From positions 1,800,813 to 1,864,812 of the forward strand of contig CP157796.1 in the NCBI GenBank assembly GCA_040112665.1: a stretch of 64,000 nucleotides of DNA, written 5' to 3'. Position 1 is the stretch's first letter; each line of letters begins with the position of its first letter. This DNA is from Oceanicaulis sp. GTDB lineage: Bacteria > Pseudomonadota > Alphaproteobacteria > Caulobacterales > Maricaulaceae. Made by a program: the position numbers and the translations under genes. A model generated the notes under the pieces. It worked only from the letters and a program-made list of their open reading frames with translations. It was not told where the DNA came from and made no database searches. Of the stretch, positions 31,915 through 57,661 are shown one piece after another.

Positions 31915-32136
31915 ATGAGCGGCGAGGACGAGACATTGCGCGACGCGCTGGCCTACGCGCTGTGGCGCTCGCCCTGGCGGACGCGGCTCGGCGGGCTGGA
32001 CGCGTGCCGGCTCGCCGCGGCCGATCTGGTGCGTCATCTTCGGCGCGCTGGCTACGAGGTCCGCCCAGGCCCCCCGATGGAGCCGCACGGGGGGCTTTCC
32101 AGAGGCGCGCCGGACGATCAGTCCTCCGCCCACTGA
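31915..32136 (+). CDS. Small protein of unknown function, probably SOS-controlled
   Basis: 73 residues from ATG 31915 with gcgagggg upstream. N-terminal DETLRDALAYALWRSPWRTR, then a short amphipathic helix and a Pro/Gly-rich tail; no membrane helix. No family recognised. The perfect LexA box upstream suggests induction by DNA damage. Its 3' end overlaps the end of the PKHD hydroxylase gene by 19 bp on the other strand. An in-frame upstream ATG at 31855 lies before the LexA box and is not favoured. Confidence 0.6.
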   Translation: MSGEDETLRDALAYALWRSPWRTRLGGLDACRLAAADLVRHLRRAGYEVRPGPPMEPHGGLSRGAPDDQSSAH

Positions 32137-32780
32137 CGCAAGAGATTCGCCCGGCTCTTGGCGATCCGGTCATAGGCTTCGGTCTTGCCGCCGGTCCTGA
32201 AGACCTCGCGTGCGGCCGCGCCGAGATCGAACAGGATCTCTCGCTGGTCGGCCCGGCGCACGAAGCTGCGCACCCAGCCTACACAGGCCAGGCGCTCGCC
32301 TCGGGTCACAGGCGTCACCTCGTGCAGGGCGCCTGTCGGGTAGAGCACCGCGTCACCGGCTTCGAGCTTCACCTCCGTCGCCCCGGCGCTGTCGTAAAGC
32401 ACCAGCGCGCCGCCTTCATAGCCGGACGGATCGCTGAGAAAGACGGTGAAGGACAGATCGCTGCGGCTGCGCCCCATCAGCGCGTCGTCGACATGGACGC
32501 CATACGCCTCGCCCGGCCCGTAAAGGCTGATCATGGTGCGCAGGATGCGGTTCGGAAGGGCGGCTTCCCGGAACGTCTCATGACGATTGAGCGCGGCCTC
32601 GACCAGTCGTCTCGCGGTGTCCGCCTGAGGCCCGGGACGCATCTGCCGGTTCGCCTTCACCGCCCTGGCCGCCGCGCCCGCGGTCCGCGCGCCGTCGGAG
32701 AACAGGGCGGGATCGGCGGCGAGCTTTCGAACCGCAGCGAGGTCTTCGGCGTTCAAAACCTGTGAAAGGCGATGCAGCAT
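32118..32780 (-). CDS. Fe(II)/2-oxoglutarate-dependent PKHD-type hydroxylase, PiuC-like
   Basis: 220 residues. Iron ligands H96 and D98 (VHVDDALM) and H153 (GALHEVTPVTRGERL), with 2-oxoglutarate-binding R163. This is the PiuC/YbiX layout; members are often iron-regulated and near TonB siderophore receptors, but none is here. Substrate unknown. Confidence 0.9.
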   Translation of the reverse strand: MLHRLSQVLNAEDLAAVRKLAADPALFSDGARTAGAAARAVKANRQMRPGPQADTARRLVEAALNRHETFREAALPNRILRTMISLYGPGEAYGVHVDDALMGRSRSDLSFTVFLSDPSGYEGGALVLYDSAGATEVKLEAGDAVLYPTGALHEVTPVTRGERLACVGWVRSFVRRADQREILFDLGAAAREVFRTGGKTEAYDRIAKSRANLLRQWAED

Positions 32781-32850
32781 TGCGGGCTTTCTTGCAAATC
32801 GTTCGCAGCCGGGCTAGCACGGCCGCCACAAGAAAGAAAAGGACGCGCTC

Positions 32851-33795
32851 ATGGCTATCCGCAAGACCCCGTTGTTCTGGACCGCGAGTCTGGCCGCCGT
32901 CGCCGCCGGTTCGCTGGGCGCGTGCGGCGAGCCGGAGACCGGCCGGGAAAGCGCCGATCAGGTCGAACTGACCGATCCCGAAGCGCTGCGCGACGGCGAG
33001 GCGGCGATCACGGCGTCTGACGATGAAGCCGGTACACAGACCGAAACCGCGGCCGCGGGTCCCGATCTCGAAGGCGAGGGCGGAGAAGGCGGCGAAGGTG
33101 GCGAGGCCGGCGGCGAATTCGGCATCGACCCGGCGATCGCGGCCGACGATCCGGTGGTCTATCTTTCGGCGATCGAGGTGATGCGGGCGCACTATCTGGC
33201 GGGCCTCGCCGCGCTGGAAGCGGGAGACCGCAGCGCTGCGTCGGAAATGTTCTCCCACCCGGTCTCCGAGATCTACATCGACTTCGAACCGGTGATCGAG
33301 GAGCGCGGCGGCACGGTCATGCTCGAAGAGATGAACGAGGCCGCGGTGCTGCACTTCCAGGGCGCGTCGGACGAGGAGATCCGCAACGCGGTGGTCACCG
33401 TGCTCGAGCTTCTCGATCAGAACGAAGAGGTCGCGCCCGCGCCGCGCACCGAACAGGCGCTGGTGGACGCCGAGGTCCTGCTCGATCTCGCCGACCGCGC
33501 CGCGCTCCAGTACGGGTTCGCGGCGGGCGAAACCGCCGGCGGGGAAGCCTGGCTCGACGCTTATGGTTTCAACGCCGCCGCCCAGATCTACGCACGGCGC
33601 AAGACCGAGGCGATCATCCTCGAGCGCCCTGATCTGGCGCAGGCCATCGCCGAGCTTTTGGTGGTGATGGAGAGCGCGTTCAGCGACTATGATGGACCGG
33701 ACGAGAGCGCGCCGTCGCCTCAGGCCGTCGCGGATGCGGCGGAGGCGCTGCGCCGTCAGATCGACCCGCCGGGCGACGAGGCGACCGCGCCCTAG
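32851..33795 (+). CDS. Putative periplasmic lipoprotein, unknown
   Basis: 314 residues. Signal with lipobox LGAC (C25), then a Glu/Gly-rich low-complexity linker (about 70-90, repeated GEGGEGGE units). An all-helical domain follows from about 100 to 300 (VMRAHYLAGLAALEAGDRSA and similar), with His and Glu residues spaced as in helical metal-binding proteins. No family could be named. Divergent from the hydroxylase gene and convergent with the DUF3299 lipoprotein gene. Confidence 0.65.
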   Translation: MAIRKTPLFWTASLAAVAAGSLGACGEPETGRESADQVELTDPEALRDGEAAITASDDEAGTQTETAAAGPDLEGEGGEGGEGGEAGGEFGIDPAIAADDPVVYLSAIEVMRAHYLAGLAALEAGDRSAASEMFSHPVSEIYIDFEPVIEERGGTVMLEEMNEAAVLHFQGASDEEIRNAVVTVLELLDQNEEVAPAPRTEQALVDAEVLLDLADRAALQYGFAAGETAGGEAWLDAYGFNAAAQIYARRKTEAIILERPDLAQAIAELLVVMESAFSDYDGPDESAPSPQAVADAAEALRRQIDPPGDEATAP

Positions 33796-33799
33796 GCGG

Positions 33800-34363
33800 C
33801 TACTCCCTGTAGGGCGATACCGACCGGGCCGTCATCGCATAGGCGCTGGCGGCCAGATCGGTGTCCACGCGCTCGATCTCGATGCGCCCTTCCACCCAGA
33901 CCGGCTCCCACAGGCTGTCGAACCGGATCGGTTCGGGCGAGCGCAGATAGACCACCTGGTTGGGCGGCGGCGCGGGCGAGTGGATGCAGGCGCCGTGATA
34001 GGGCAGCAGCAGGAATTCCCGCGCCTCGCCGCGCTGGGCGTAGTTCAGCGGCAGGATGTAGCCCGGCATGCGGACGACCAGCCCGTCGAGATCCTCCACC
34101 ACGTTGAACGTGCCGATCTGGCCCTCGACCGGGCTCTGATTGAGGAAGCGGCCGAGCATGGAGGGATCGGCCCGGCCCTCGTCCAGCGCCTGGATCGTTT
34201 CGAGGTCCTCGTCGGGGATGAGGTCGCGCCAGCTGACCGTTTCAGCCTCGATCGAGGCGTCGACCGGCTCCAGTCCCAGATCCGCGCCCGGAGGCGGCGC
34301 TGCGTCCTCTCCGCAGGCGGCGAGCAGGACCAGGCTGGCGGCGAGGGCGAGGCGAAGCGTCAT
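33800..34363 (-). CDS. DUF3299 lipoprotein
   Basis: 187 residues from ATG 34363. Lipobox LAAC (about C17) after a short signal. The DUF3299 core is visible: MPGYILPL, FLLLPYHGACIHSPAPPPNQ. The conserved Cys/His in GACIH could bind a metal or haem, but this is not established. An upstream ATG at 34402 would only add residues before the signal peptide. Confidence 0.82.
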   Translation of the reverse strand: MTLRLALAASLVLLAACGEDAAPPPGADLGLEPVDASIEAETVSWRDLIPDEDLETIQALDEGRADPSMLGRFLNQSPVEGQIGTFNVVEDLDGLVVRMPGYILPLNYAQRGEAREFLLLPYHGACIHSPAPPPNQVVYLRSPEPIRFDSLWEPVWVEGRIEIERVDTDLAASAYAMTARSVSPYRE

Positions 34364-34521
34364 GATCGTTTCCGGTCCGTCGGCGACGTAACAAAGTAAC
34401 ATCCAGAATGGGGATCGCGGTGCCCTGCCGCAAGATGAATCCGAAATCCACGCTGTTTTAAGACCTTTGCGGGATGATCCTCTCCAGAACTGCGGAAAAA
34501 CGCGGTCAGGAGGGTGGATTG

Positions 34522-36357
34522 ATGGCGCTCGAGGATACGAGCAAACAAACCGTCGCGGCTGAGAGCCGGCGGATGAAACGGCTGCTGGTCGCGCGCAGCG
34601 CTGTGCGCGCCGTGCCGATGAATATCGTGAACGCGTTGCTTTTGAGCGTGCTTTTCCTGGGTCATGTCGACCCGGTCGCGCACGGGGCGTGGTTCTCGGT
34701 GCTCACGATCGCGGCGCTTCTGCGCCTGGCCTCGATGTGGCGCGCCACCCGCGCCGACCGGGTGCCGACCGACGGCGAGATGCTGCGCTACACCCTGATG
34801 AGCGGCGTTGTCGGGCTGTGCTGGGGCGCCACGCCGTTCCTTCTCACCGACTCCACCCCTGCGATCGTCGGTCACGCCGTTGCGCTTGTGATCGCGGGCA
34901 TGGTCGCCGGCGCGGGCCTGACCAGCGCGGCGGAGCACCGGGTGGTCACCGCCTACGCCGTGCCTGCGCTGGGTCTCTGGGCTGTCTCGCTGGCGCTCGA
35001 AGGCACCTGGCAGGGCTTTCTCGTCGCCTTCATGCTGGCGGCCTTCTATCTGGCGATGAACACGCTGACGAAGACCTATTCCAACACGCTGGCCGAAGCG
35101 GTCCGCGCCAATGTCGCGCTTGAAGAGGCGCACCGGCACACAGAGGCGCAGGCCGCCGCCCTGTCGCGCCTGGCCGAGCATAACGACCAGGCCGCCCGCC
35201 GCGCCGAAGATCAGGCGCGGGCGAGCGCGGCGATGATCGCGAACATGAGCCATGAACTGCGCTCCCCGCTGAACGGCGTGCTCGGCATGGCCCAGCTTCT
35301 GGCGGAGAACGATCTGTCCGCGGATCAGAAGCGCATGGCTCGCCGCATCACCGAATCCGGCGAGGAGCTGAACCGGCTCCTGACCGACGTGCTCGACGTC
35401 TCGCGCATTGAGGCAGGCAGGCTTGAGCTGAGCCTGGAGGACGTCACCGCCCGGAGCCTCGCCGATAAAGTGCGCCGGCGCATGCAGCCGATCGCCGACG
35501 CCAAGGGCGTGGCGTTCGAGGTGCAGGTGTCCGGGGAGGCCGTGCGCCCCTTGCGCGCCGATGAAGAACGGCTCCTGCAGCTCGCCACCATTTTCGTCGG
35601 CAACGCCGTGCGCTTCACCGACGCGGGCGGGGTGACCGCCGCCTTCATCGCCAAGCCGGGCGGAGAGGGCGAGGCGCGCCTGCGCGTGCAGGTCCGTGAC
35701 ACCGGATGCGGCGTGCCCGAAAGCGCGCGGCCGAACCTGTTCGACGCGCTGTCGGCGGACAAGATGGACGCGAATATCCGCGAGGCCGGCACCGGTCTCG
35801 GGCTCTACCTCGCCAAGCGCCTTGCGCGCCTGATGGACGGCGAGGTCGGCTACGAACCCGCCGCCAGCGGCGCCGGCTCCGTGTTCTGGTTCGAAGTCGG
35901 GCTGAAGCTCTCGGGCAAGGCCGACCGCTGGGCGGACGGCGAGCAGCTGACCTTCGAAGCGCGCCGGTTGCGCATGCTGGTGGGCGAGTCCGATCCTGCG
36001 CGCCGGTCCGTGCTGCTGGGTTATCTGAAATCGTTCAATTGCGTCGTCACCTGCGTGGAGACGAGCGAGGAACTGGTCGAAGCGCTGGGCGCGGCCGCCT
36101 ACGACTCGGTCGTGCTGGGTCTGGCGCTCAGCGATTGCGAGCCCGAAGAGGCCGCCGGCGATATCCGGGGTCTTGCGTCGACCGCAGCGATGACGCCGAT
36201 CGTGCGCCTGGTCCGCGATCTCGAACAGCCCGTTCTGGCTGCGGCGACCGAGACGCGCGTGCGCGCGCCGGTGTCGGCCGACGCCCTGCTGGACGGGCTG
36301 AACATGGCGCTGTCCAGCGATGCGGCGGCGCTCGCCAATCTGCGCCGCATCGCCTGA
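34522..36357 (+). CDS. Membrane sensor histidine kinase with a degenerate receiver domain
   Basis: 611 residues from ATG 34522, chosen for its aggaggg site 7 bases upstream (ATG 34474 has none). About five or six membrane helices (30-180), a coiled linker, HisKA with H244 in MSHELRSPLNG, and an ATPase domain with N361, DTGCGVP and GTGLGLYLAK. The C-terminal part (482-600) has the receiver fold but lacks the phosphoacceptor Asp (Gly533 sits in its place) and the conserved Lys (Ala582). It cannot be phosphorylated normally and may act as a docking or inhibitory module. Signal unknown. Confidence 0.85.
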   Translation: MALEDTSKQTVAAESRRMKRLLVARSAVRAVPMNIVNALLLSVLFLGHVDPVAHGAWFSVLTIAALLRLASMWRATRADRVPTDGEMLRYTLMSGVVGLCWGATPFLLTDSTPAIVGHAVALVIAGMVAGAGLTSAAEHRVVTAYAVPALGLWAVSLALEGTWQGFLVAFMLAAFYLAMNTLTKTYSNTLAEAVRANVALEEAHRHTEAQAAALSRLAEHNDQAARRAEDQARASAAMIANMSHELRSPLNGVLGMAQLLAENDLSADQKRMARRITESGEELNRLLTDVLDVSRIEAGRLELSLEDVTARSLADKVRRRMQPIADAKGVAFEVQVSGEAVRPLRADEERLLQLATIFVGNAVRFTDAGGVTAAFIAKPGGEGEARLRVQVRDTGCGVPESARPNLFDALSADKMDANIREAGTGLGLYLAKRLARLMDGEVGYEPAASGAGSVFWFEVGLKLSGKADRWADGEQLTFEARRLRMLVGESDPARRSVLLGYLKSFNCVVTCVETSEELVEALGAAAYDSVVLGLALSDCEPEEAAGDIRGLASTAAMTPIVRLVRDLEQPVLAAATETRVRAPVSADALLDGLNMALSSDAAALANLRRIA

Positions 36358-56491: not shown

Positions 56492-57661
56492 TCAACGCGG
56501 TTCGAGGCCGAAACTGTCGTCGACGATCCGTGCGGCCATGCGCGCGGACTCCTCGCCCTCCTCTCGGGCGGTGACCAGGTCGGCGTCGGCCTCGAGCCGG
56601 TAGACGAGGTCTCCGTCCTCCACCGCCTTGCTCGCCGATCCTTTCAGCACCGCCGGCACGACGCGCGTGAGAAGCTGGGTGCCAAAGCCTTCGGGCGCAG
56701 CGTCGCCATTCGTCGCCGCGTCGGCCAGGCCTGTTTCGCGCCAGATCAGTTCGAAGCGCTCGCCGTGAAGCCGCCAGGAGACGTGCACCCGGGCGTCCTC
56801 GTTCACGCCCAGCCCGTATTTCTGGGTGTTCGTGGCGAGTTCGTGCAGGGCCAGGCTGAGCTGCTGGGCCGCTTCGGGGGAGATCTCGATCGAGGGGCCC
56901 TCGATGGAGACGCGGTCGCTCCAGGCGTCTTTCAGTGCGGCGAGCCGGGTTTCGACGACCTGCTCGATCCCTGTCGACGACCGGTTCTTGCTTTCGGTGA
57001 CCGACCGTGTCGCGTCCGACAGCGCTGCGACGCGCGCAAGAAACGCGCTCAGGAACTCGTCGGTGCGCTCGGCGCCCTTGGCGGTCTGGTTGGCGAGCGA
57101 GGACACCACGGCGAGCAGGTTGCTGCTGCGATGCACCGCCTCGCGCGCCTGAACCGCCAGCATGGCGTTGGCCTGTTTGAGTTCGGCGGTGCGCGCCTCC
57201 ACCTGGCTTTCGAGCGAGGCGAGCGTTTCCTTGTGCGCGGCGATCTCCTCGCGCAGCTGCCGGTTCGCAAACTCCATCGCGGCGGGCGAGGGCAGGCGGA
57301 CGAGCGTCGGAATCAGCCTGAAAAGGACGACCGCCGTAGCGAGCGAGACCAGCCCCGTCGCGAGCTTCAGCGCGCCGACGAACGGGTAGATCGGCCACCA
57401 CAGAGTCACGATGCCCATCAGGTGGGTGAGGCCGCACAGCAGGATGAACGAGGCGAACAGCGCGACCAGACCGCTATGGGGCACGTCCTTGCGCTGGCGC
57501 AGCACGAGGAGCAGGGCGATCGGGATGGCCGTGTAGGACAGAAAGATCAGCGCGTCCGAGCCGGCCCAGAGAAGCACCAGCCAGGGCTGCCACAGCAGGC
57601 ACATGCCGTGCGGCATATACTCGCCGAACTCCATTGCGTGGGTCACGTCCGGGTCCTCCAT
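56492..57661 (-). CDS. HWE-family histidine kinase with an ETR1-like ethylene-binding domain
   Basis: 389 residues. The N-terminal 120 residues form about three membrane helices that follow the plant ETR1 ethylene-binding domain: D36, Y43, P47, I73, C76 and H80 correspond to ETR1 D25, Y32, P36, I62, C65 and H69 at a constant offset of 11. FILLCGLTH contains the copper-ligand Cys and His. A coiled coil (about 128-172) leads to an HWE-type kinase: phospho-His H177 in AVHRSSN, N-box ALHELATN and WRE at 307-309. The correspondence comes from recalled ETR1 positions, not a search. No response regulator is encoded next to it. Confidence 0.85.
   Translation of the reverse strand: MEDPDVTHAMEFGEYMPHGMCLLWQPWLVLLWAGSDALIFLSYTAIPIALLLVLRQRKDVPHSGLVALFASFILLCGLTHLMGIVTLWWPIYPFVGALKLATGLVSLATAVVLFRLIPTLVRLPSPAAMEFANRQLREEIAAHKETLASLESQVEARTAELKQANAMLAVQAREAVHRSSNLLAVVSSLANQTAKGAERTDEFLSAFLARVAALSDATRSVTESKNRSSTGIEQVVETRLAALKDAWSDRVSIEGPSIEISPEAAQQLSLALHELATNTQKYGLGVNEDARVHVSWRLHGERFELIWRETGLADAATNGDAAPEGFGTQLLTRVVPAVLKGSASKAVEDGDLVYRLEADADLVTAREEGEESARMAARIVDDSFGLEPR

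What the first reader, a model, noticed from the sequence alone, without database searches (positions are those of the whole stretch)
56492..57661. Bacterial histidine kinase with a complete ETR1-like ethylene/copper-binding domain
The N-terminal membrane domain carries D36, Y43, P47, I73, C76 and H80. These match ETR1 D25, Y32, P36, I62, C65 and H69 with one constant offset of 11, including the copper-ligand Cys and His in FILLCGLTH. The kinase half is HWE type, unlike plant receptors, and no partner regulator is adjacent. A gas- or copper-sensing system in an alphaproteobacterium of this kind would be little described. The ETR1 positions are from memory.
Basis: partly seen in the sequence, partly recalled or inferred. 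Interest (0 to 1): 0.85.

Follow-up and report, generated by a model that had tools for sequence, protein, structure and literature searches.

The report
ETR1-type ethylene sensor with HWE kinase
This bacterium carries a protein that joins a domain of the same family as the ethylene-binding part of the plant hormone receptor ETR1, with its key copper-site residues in place, to a different, bacterial type of kinase, so it is likely an ethylene sensor, predicted to need copper and to act on a stress-type signalling pathway that is still untested.

Summary
The minus-strand ORF 56492-57661 matches Pfam ETR1_N (107 bits, cut-off 27) and HWE_HK (58 bits). D36, C76, H80 and K99 align without gaps to AzoEtr1 of Azospirillum brasilense (44% over 131 residues), which binds ethylene (PMC11819568). 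C76 and H80 are kept in all 119 other listed homologues, D36 in 117. Family membership is secure; ethylene binding is likely; output is inferred. Less expected: the HWE pairing (12 of 53 proteins); likely horizontal arrival from a Sphingomonadales-dominated clade; an HGxC motif before helix 1, outside the Pfam model, kept in 59 of 63 copies with intact copper Cys/His and 1 of 6 without, suggesting a periplasmic copper-loading element; a second receptor gene in the same genome; and, in Maricaulis, stand-alone ethylene-binding-domain proteins of about 127 residues encoded beside a kinase.

The parts
56492..57661 (-). ETR1_N + HWE sensor histidine kinase gene (ORF 389 aa; likely start GTG at 57646, 384 aa)
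57655..57659 (-). GGAGG, likely ribosome-binding site for the GTG start at 57646 (spacing 8)
   Evidence: sequence printed; most listed homologues begin at or near this codon
57599..57613 (-). P17-H18-G19-M20-C21: conserved HGxC motif just before helix 1, outside the Pfam domain
   Evidence: P17, H18, G19, C21 in all 119 other listed homologues; H18 and C21 in 59 of 63 family members with intact Cys/His
57293..57580 (-). ETR1_N ethylene-binding domain (residues 28-123); predicted helices at 57494-57586, 57398-57475, 57296-57388
   Evidence: Pfam 107.3 bits; AlphaFold model mean pLDDT 85.6
57422..57436 (-). C76-G-L-T-H80, predicted Cu(I) ligands on helix 2
   Evidence: aligned with AzoEtr1 C75/H79; kept in all 119 other listed homologues
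56894..57142 (-). HWE_HK phosphoacceptor domain (residues 174-256) with H177-R-S-S-N181
   Evidence: Pfam 58.2 bits; H177, R178, N181 in all 119
56660..56890 (-). ATP-binding domain (residues 258-334), N-box H273-E274, W307-x-E309, G325-F-G327
   Evidence: HATPase_c_2 21.2 bits, below its cut-off of 27.4; fold matches Brucella LOV-HK kinase domain 5epv, E 7e-14; E274, W307, E309 and G325-G327 in all 119, H273 in 94 with Y in 25

Best explanation
The gene encodes a domain of the ETR1 ethylene-binding family joined to an HWE histidine kinase, and it is likely a Cu(I)-dependent ethylene receptor in the membrane that would signal by phosphotransfer to an unlinked response regulator, probably of the PhyR general stress response. 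Steps: (1) shown: the domain belongs to the ETR1_N family and keeps the D, C, H and K positions mapped between ETR1 and AzoEtr1, and Y43, I46, P47 and I73, which complete the seven-residue list as I recall it. (2) Predicted: three membrane helices, N-terminus outside, followed by a long helix into the kinase. (3) Inferred by homology to AzoEtr1: Cu(I) held by C76 and H80 binds ethylene. (4) Hypothesis: the conserved HGxC motif at the outer face passes periplasmic Cu(I) to that site or completes it. (5) Inferred: ethylene changes helix packing and so the autokinase. (6) Shown: HRxxN and HWE residues are present; inferred: the phosphoryl group goes to PhyR or to a single-domain regulator, as for other alphaproteobacterial HWE kinases. 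(7) Supported by a tree: the gene arrived horizontally.
For: Pfam match; residue conservation in the 119 other homologues listed, of 733 found; gap-free 44% identity over 131 residues to AzoEtr1, which binds ethylene (PMC11819568); model with helices 21-51, 58-83, 87-117 and 121-191 in 384-aa numbering and a charged first loop (RQRKDVPH), which suggests that the N-terminus is outside; kinase fold like Brucella LOV-HK. Output: HRxxN in all 119; S. melonis Paks of the HWE/HisKA_2 family with HRxxN phosphorylate PhyR and SdrG (PMC5898713, passages); several Caulobacter HWE/HisKA_2 kinases phosphorylate MrrA (PMC5964349, passages). The genome holds PhyR, NepR and a HisKA_2 kinase side by side and 9 HWE matches. 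A plasmid orthologue (59%) in Blastomonas sp. RAC04, source 'algal phycosphere', lies next to an integrase and two response regulators of 129 and 131 residues.
Against: No ligand was tested. No receiver-domain gene is adjacent in the window. The exact SdrG/MrrA motif PFxFATG was not found in the genome by DNA pattern; a looser pattern found only PFLFLTGY, in a single-domain regulator beside another HWE kinase. In the other Maricaulaceae orthologue (G108) the gene follows PhoU and a DNA-binding regulator of the PhoB/OmpR type, not PhyR. D36 is N in 2 and H273 of the HWE N-box is Y in 25 of 119 homologues. The Paks of S. melonis are described as cytoplasmic; this kinase is predicted to be in the membrane. 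HGxC as a copper element rests on correlation among related rows only; four copies with intact Cys/His lack it and one of six without keeps it, and the motif lies in a poorly modelled stretch (mean pLDDT 57 for residues 11-20). The window protein's four nearest tree neighbours have no named host.
Confidence: 0.55

Rival explanations
1. The domain binds Cu(I) but the physiological signal is copper itself, or another small ligand of Cu(I) such as carbon monoxide or another alkene, rather than ethylene.
For: The copper site and the HGxC motif are among the most conserved features; homologues come from many bacteria with no evident tie to plants; ethylene binding was shown only for relatives.
Against: AzoEtr1, 44% identical in the domain, binds and responds to ethylene (PMC11819568); the residues mapped as needed for ethylene binding, not only the copper ligands, are kept.
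Confidence: 0.25
2. The ethylene receptor reading is right, but the output is a dedicated or shared single-domain regulator controlling attachment or motility, not the PhyR stress response.
For: Small response regulators lie next to the Blastomonas plasmid orthologue and one gene beyond the genome's second receptor; AzoEtr1 has a 135-aa single-domain regulator overlapping it and affects biofilm (PMC11819568).
Against: HWE kinases in two alphaproteobacteria feed PhyR directly or through SdrG/MrrA; no single-domain regulator is linked to the window gene.
Confidence: 0.3
3. The gene is a recent horizontal arrival without function in this host.
For: Present in 3 of 137 family genomes at E<=1e-40, own included, and in none of the 14 other same-genus genomes listed.
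Against: The domain, phosphoacceptor and ATP-site residues that are invariant in the listed homologues are intact, the reading frame is whole and a likely ribosome-binding site is present.
Confidence: 0.05

Closest known systems
AzoEtr1, Azospirillum brasilense (PMC11819568; abstract, section 6, passages)
   Same: Alphaproteobacterial ETR1-type domain, 44% identical over 131 residues without gaps, same D, C, H and K positions and the same HGxC motif
   Different: AzoEtr1 has a PAS domain before its histidine kinase and an overlapping single-domain regulator gene; the window protein has no PAS match, an HWE kinase and no linked regulator
SynEtr1 (Slr1212), Synechocystis (passages in PMC11819568, PMC6682694 and PMC7700396)
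   Same: Bacterial ethylene-binding histidine kinase; three other cyanobacterial homologues fetched from plasmids show HGxC
   Different: SynEtr1 is a bifunctional ethylene and light receptor with a known regulator; its own sequence was not compared here
Plant ETR1
   Same: Counterparts of D25, C65, H69 and K91, through the published AzoEtr1 mapping
   Different: Plant receptors signal through CTR1 and have no HWE kinase (recalled); plant sequences were not fetched, and I recall no HGxC in plant ETR1
HWE/HisKA_2 kinases: Brucella LOV-HK (5epv, 6ph4), S. melonis Paks (PMC5898713, passages)
   Same: Kinase half: fold, HRxxN and HWE residues
   Different: Sensor half is an ETR1-type domain instead of LOV, PAS or GAF

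Membership tests
ETR1-type ethylene-binding domain (Pfam PF25487) | Profile match above the curated cut-off | tested here: met
   107.3 bits, cut-off 27
ETR1-type ethylene-binding domain (Pfam PF25487) | Residues needed for ethylene binding in ETR1 (D25, C65, H69 and K91 mapping read in PMC11819568; Y32, I35, P36, I62 recalled) | tested here: met
   D36, C76, H80, K99 aligned gap-free to AzoEtr1; Y43, I46, P47, I73 present
ETR1-type ethylene-binding domain (Pfam PF25487) | Three transmembrane helices at the N-terminus | tested here: met
   AlphaFold helices 21-51, 58-83, 87-117; a prediction only
Ethylene receptor (function) | Saturable ethylene binding that needs copper | not testable with these tools
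   Ethylene binding shown for the relative AzoEtr1 (PMC11819568)
Ethylene receptor (function) | Ethylene-dependent signalling | not testable with these tools
HWE histidine kinase | HWE_HK profile, HRxxN phosphoacceptor, H in N-box, WxE | tested here: met
   58.2 bits, cut-off 22.8; H177, R178, N181, W307, E309 in all 119 other homologues; H273 present here, in 94 of 119 relatives
HWE histidine kinase | Kinase fold | tested here: met
   Best PDB matches of the model are 5epv and 6ph4
General stress response input kinase (Pak type) | Phosphotransfer to PhyR or SdrG/MrrA | not testable with these tools
   PhyR, NepR and a HisKA_2 kinase beside them exist in the genome
General stress response input kinase (Pak type) | SdrG/MrrA-type regulator with PFxFATG(G/Y) present | tested here: inconclusive
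   Exact motif not found by DNA pattern; one variant PFLFLTGY

The most novel reading that the evidence does not exclude
Bacterial ethylene receptors carry a second metal element that plant receptors lack: an outward-facing His-Gly-x-Cys that takes Cu(I) from the periplasm and hands it to the Cys/His site, so ethylene and periplasmic copper are sensed together. In the HWE branch this receptor has been wired to the alphaproteobacterial general stress response, making a photochemically or algally produced gas a stress cue, and the branch moves between lineages, in one case on a mobilizable plasmid of an alga-associated strain.
Probability: 0.2. Interest if true: 0.8.

Novelty: new variant of a known kind. 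Interest (0 to 1): 0.52.

Why it matters
Ethylene sensing outside plants is known in detail for only a few bacteria. An HWE-type receptor would connect a plant hormone, also formed by sunlight in water (PMC6682694), to the alphaproteobacterial stress network, and it can be tested with existing assays. No solved structure of the ethylene-binding membrane domain was found by sequence, and the stand-alone domain model has no PDB fold match at E<=0.001, so how Cu(I) and ethylene are held looks still open; the stand-alone versions of about 127 residues found in Maricaulis are small candidates for such a structure, and the HGxC motif gives a specific mutation to make.

Tried and rejected
A conserved gene neighbourhood was sought in 36 loci (34 named genomes, the window and G108, simple gene caller): order is shared only among near relatives, so no operon partner was found. 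A receiver-domain scan of 37 sources, including the Blastomonas plasmid (home-made profile, which missed one of the two annotated plasmid regulators), found 12 matches. A free-standing regulator is immediately beside the gene in 2 sources (G108; the plasmid) and a hybrid kinase is beside it, or one short called frame away, in 4 (L076, L082, L085, L092; domains confirmed). L096, L101, L103 and L105 have one about 6-7 kb away, the window one 18 kb away.

An SdrG/MrrA orthologue by exact motif: none. A PDB structure of the membrane domain by sequence: none; by fold: the 50 rows shown for the whole model are kinases or kinase-like proteins (50 of 514), and for the stand-alone domain nothing at E<=0.001 (50 of 153 rows shown). 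Papers: 'ethylene receptor' with 'HWE histidine kinase', 2 papers, both on phytochromes by title, not read; 'ethylene-binding domain' with 'alphaproteobacteria', none; receptor terms with Sphingomonadales, Erythrobacter or Maricaulis, 213 papers held two of five terms, none of the 15 listed titles is on a bacterial receptor; a cryo-EM structure paper, none. Open-access library only.

The class sample (1 of 337, own) scored at most 5 candidates per genome and can miss orthologues; it is not used for a frequency claim. The 47 named loci were picked by the peptide patterns YMPHGMC and WAGSD[LA]LIF, so they were left out of the HGxC count. The 120 listed homologues include the window's own protein, so counts are given for the other 119. 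In one search, 5 of 60 loci (L055-L059) gave no CGxxH stretch; L055-L058 entered the count through a profile search. Not in that count: L059, a second match in G443 and a 48-residue fragment in G558 (no locus), and the two weak matches with a stop in G158 and G103 (L071, L072), which the profile did not find. The 69 rows include near relatives, so the Fisher value (6e-5) overstates independence. Of 60 full-length references made, 7 stand-alone domains were left out of the 53 scanned; long proteins were cut at the locus end. My notebook says 17 same-genus genomes; the listing shows own plus 14.

Full report
The gene. The minus-strand ORF 56492-57661 encodes 389 residues from an ATG. The ATG overlaps a GGAGG that lies eight bases before a GTG at 57646, and most listed homologues start at or near that codon, so 384 residues is likelier. 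Pfam finds ETR1_N at residues 28-123 (107.3 bits, cut-off 27) and HWE_HK at 174-256 (58.2 bits, cut-off 22.8), with a weak ATPase-domain match (21.2 bits, cut-off 27.4). The plus-strand frame of the same coordinates gives no family.

Is the binding site complete? The only alphaproteobacterial receptor with shown ethylene binding that I found is AzoEtr1 (PMC11819568; abstract, section 6 and passages). That paper maps ETR1 D25, C65, H69 and K91 to AzoEtr1 D35, C75, H79 and K98, says that C65 is needed to hold the copper, and reports that the first 130 residues of AzoEtr1 bind ethylene. I took AzoEtr1 from the A. brasilense Sp7 plasmid record (L165): it has 525 residues with D35, C75, H79 and K98. 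The window protein aligns to it over 131 residues, 44% identical, without a gap; D36, C76, H80 and K99 are the counterparts. The remaining positions (Y43, I46, P47, I73) follow the seven-residue list of ETR1, which I recall and did not read. Of 733 homologues with E<=1e-3, 120 were listed, one of them the window's own protein. In the other 119, Y43, I46, P47, I73, C76, H80 and K99 are invariant and D36 is kept in 117, N in 2.

Kinase half. H177, R178, N181, E274, N278, W307, E309 and G325-F-G327 are invariant in the 119; H273 of the N-box is H in 94 and Y in 25. The best sequence and fold matches in the PDB are to the LOV-HK kinase of Brucella (5epv, 6ph4). An AlphaFold model (63 rows, mean pLDDT 85.6, pTM 0.58) shows helices at 21-51, 58-83 and 87-117 (384-residue numbers), then one long helix 121-191 into the kinase. 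The charged loop RQRKDVPH between helices 1 and 2 suggests that this loop is inside and the N-terminus outside (inference). The predicted copper ligands then sit in the outer half of helix 2.

A motif outside the Pfam model. P17, H18, G19 and C21, just before helix 1, are invariant in the 119. To test this with less bias I used copies found by the Pfam model, which does not include the motif, plus plasmid homologues found by tblastn with a domain that has it: 69 rows. Cys76 and His80 equivalents are both present in 63; of these 59 have His18 and Cys21. Six rows lack Cys or His; one of these keeps the motif. Among the six are two HisKA kinases in the window's own genus (L069, L070) whose domain still passes the Pfam cut-off but has lost the Cys, the Asp and the whole motif. 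AzoEtr1 and three cyanobacterial copies have the motif. Rows are related, so this is correlation, and the motif lies in a poorly modelled stretch. I read it as a functional coupling of the motif to the copper site, perhaps copper loading from the periplasm. I recall no such motif in plant ETR1.

How common is it? The domain is in 32 of 299 genomes sampled from the order (31 over the cut-off) and 29 of 398 from the phylum (28 over the cut-off), own genome included in both. Of 53 proteins scanned, HisKA is matched in 37, HWE_HK in 12 and HisKA_2 in 6, often with PAS domains. The window's own subfamily is rare in its family: 3 of 137 genomes at E<=1e-40, own included and one only 40% identical, and none of the 14 other same-genus genomes listed. 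Of the 47 named loci, those aligned over most of the protein are mainly Erythrobacteraceae and other Sphingomonadales, with some Rhodobacterales and Hyphomicrobiales. In a tree of 45 rows the window protein lies in a starred set of 18 rows (100/98) whose named members are all Sphingomonadales, while the other full orthologue of its family (G108) branches outside that set. The window's four nearest rows (P0002-P0005) have no named host. This supports horizontal arrival, possibly twice in the family. One orthologue (59% identical) is on the mobilizable plasmid pBSY18_2 of Blastomonas sp. RAC04, source 'algal phycosphere', beside an integrase and two response regulators.

Who is the host? Four contigs of genomes labelled g7, 'same family' as the window (G158, G113, G188, G068), have the same lengths as contigs listed for proteins named as Maricaulis. 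The window's family is therefore probably Maricaulaceae; this is inference from lengths.

Output. In S. melonis the seven Paks are HWE/HisKA_2 kinases with HRxxN that phosphorylate PhyR and SdrG (PMC5898713, passages); in Caulobacter MrrA is phosphorylated by several HWE and HisKA_2 kinases and one HisKA kinase, and also affects attachment and motility (PMC5964349, passages). The window kinase has HRSSN. Its genome has 9 HWE matches and 38 receiver-domain matches, and at C1:850-854 kb PhyR, NepR and a HisKA_2 kinase with a sub-threshold Cache match. The exact SdrG/MrrA motif was not found; one single-domain regulator beside another HWE kinase has PFLFLTGY. The route to PhyR is therefore plausible, not shown. 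Neighbourhoods of the subfamily give no consistent partner: G108 has PhoU and an OmpR-type regulator upstream, the Blastomonas plasmid two small regulators, three Sphingomonadales loci a divergent DUF4118-PAS-HWE kinase with a C-terminal receiver match.

A second receptor. The same genome has an ETR1_N-HisKA protein at C1:914709, 125.7 bits, with a 142-residue receiver-domain protein one gene further on.

Side finding. In 7 genomes labelled g7 the domain match lies in a short frame (127-158 residues; 255 in one, where the open frame runs upstream). In six of them my caller placed both genes, and the next gene, overlapping (L061, L065) or 6 to 9 bases away (L062, L063, L066, L067), is a kinase of 558-573 residues; in L064 the caller stretched the kinase frame over the domain and did not call it. 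The two kinases scanned have HisKA and HATPase_c and no ETR1_N. The 127-residue protein has 60 homologues with E<=1e-3, some of them fragments or partial kinases; in the 27 that I aligned, D, Y, I, P, I, C, H, K and PHGxC are invariant. Of the kinase's 120 listed homologues the first 28 (P0181-P0208) stand apart, 27 of them aligned over at least 93% of its length, and six share a contig length with a stand-alone domain. The stand-alone domain is predicted to fold as three helices plus a tail helix (pLDDT 81.3). This looks like a split receptor, or a small ethylene- or copper-binding protein that acts on the kinase.

Environment. PMC6682694 (passages) notes that sunlight makes ethylene from dissolved organics in water; this gives a possible source of the signal.

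Verdict. A real, well-conserved member of the ethylene-binding-domain family with an output kinase of a type not found described in the searches named in Tried and rejected. Interesting as a variant and for the HGxC motif and the stand-alone versions; not a new kind of system.

Noticed in passing
L061-L067 (genomes G143, G068, G188, G123, G049, G113, G158, genus label g7, probably Maricaulis): Stand-alone ethylene-binding-domain proteins of about 127 residues, in six of seven loci called directly before a 558-573-residue HisKA kinase; in L061 UPF0176/rhodanese and glutathione S-transferase genes follow: a possible split ethylene receptor.
   Followed up: partly
L001 / G000:C1:914709-914996 (+): Second ETR1_N protein of the window's genome, HisKA type, with a single receiver-domain protein one gene downstream (L073 9229-9657).
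   Followed up: partly
L069 6751-7857 and L070 5415-6527: In two same-genus genomes a HisKA kinase in a neighbourhood like that of the window genome's second receptor carries a degenerate ETR1_N domain (41 and 39 bits) without the copper Cys, the Asp and the HGxC motif, while an intact ETR1_N gene lies elsewhere: a natural loss of the binding site.
   Followed up: partly
window 32118-36357: A 2OG-Fe(II) oxygenase gene (PKHD type) and a lipoprotein-like gene resemble, by eye, those next to the Maricaulis stand-alone domain; in the window another HisKA kinase (34474-36357; like the Maricaulis kinase only over its kinase core, 24%) follows instead of the pair.
   Followed up: partly
L164 (Blastomonas sp. 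RAC04 plasmid pBSY18_2, 2113-4095): Orthologue of the window gene on a mobilizable plasmid next to an integrase and two overlapping small response regulators, candidates for the kinase's partners.
   Followed up: partly
L082, L085, L092 (upstream, divergent): In three Sphingomonadales loci the receptor gene lies beside a divergently transcribed DUF4118-PAS-HWE kinase with a C-terminal receiver match (below the Pfam cut-off in two of the three).
   Followed up: partly
L112-L115, L117-L119: Distant ETR1_N proteins keep CG..H but lack the conserved Pro (and in several the Ile) of helix 1, which may change ligand choice; their HGxC was part of how they were found.
   Followed up: no
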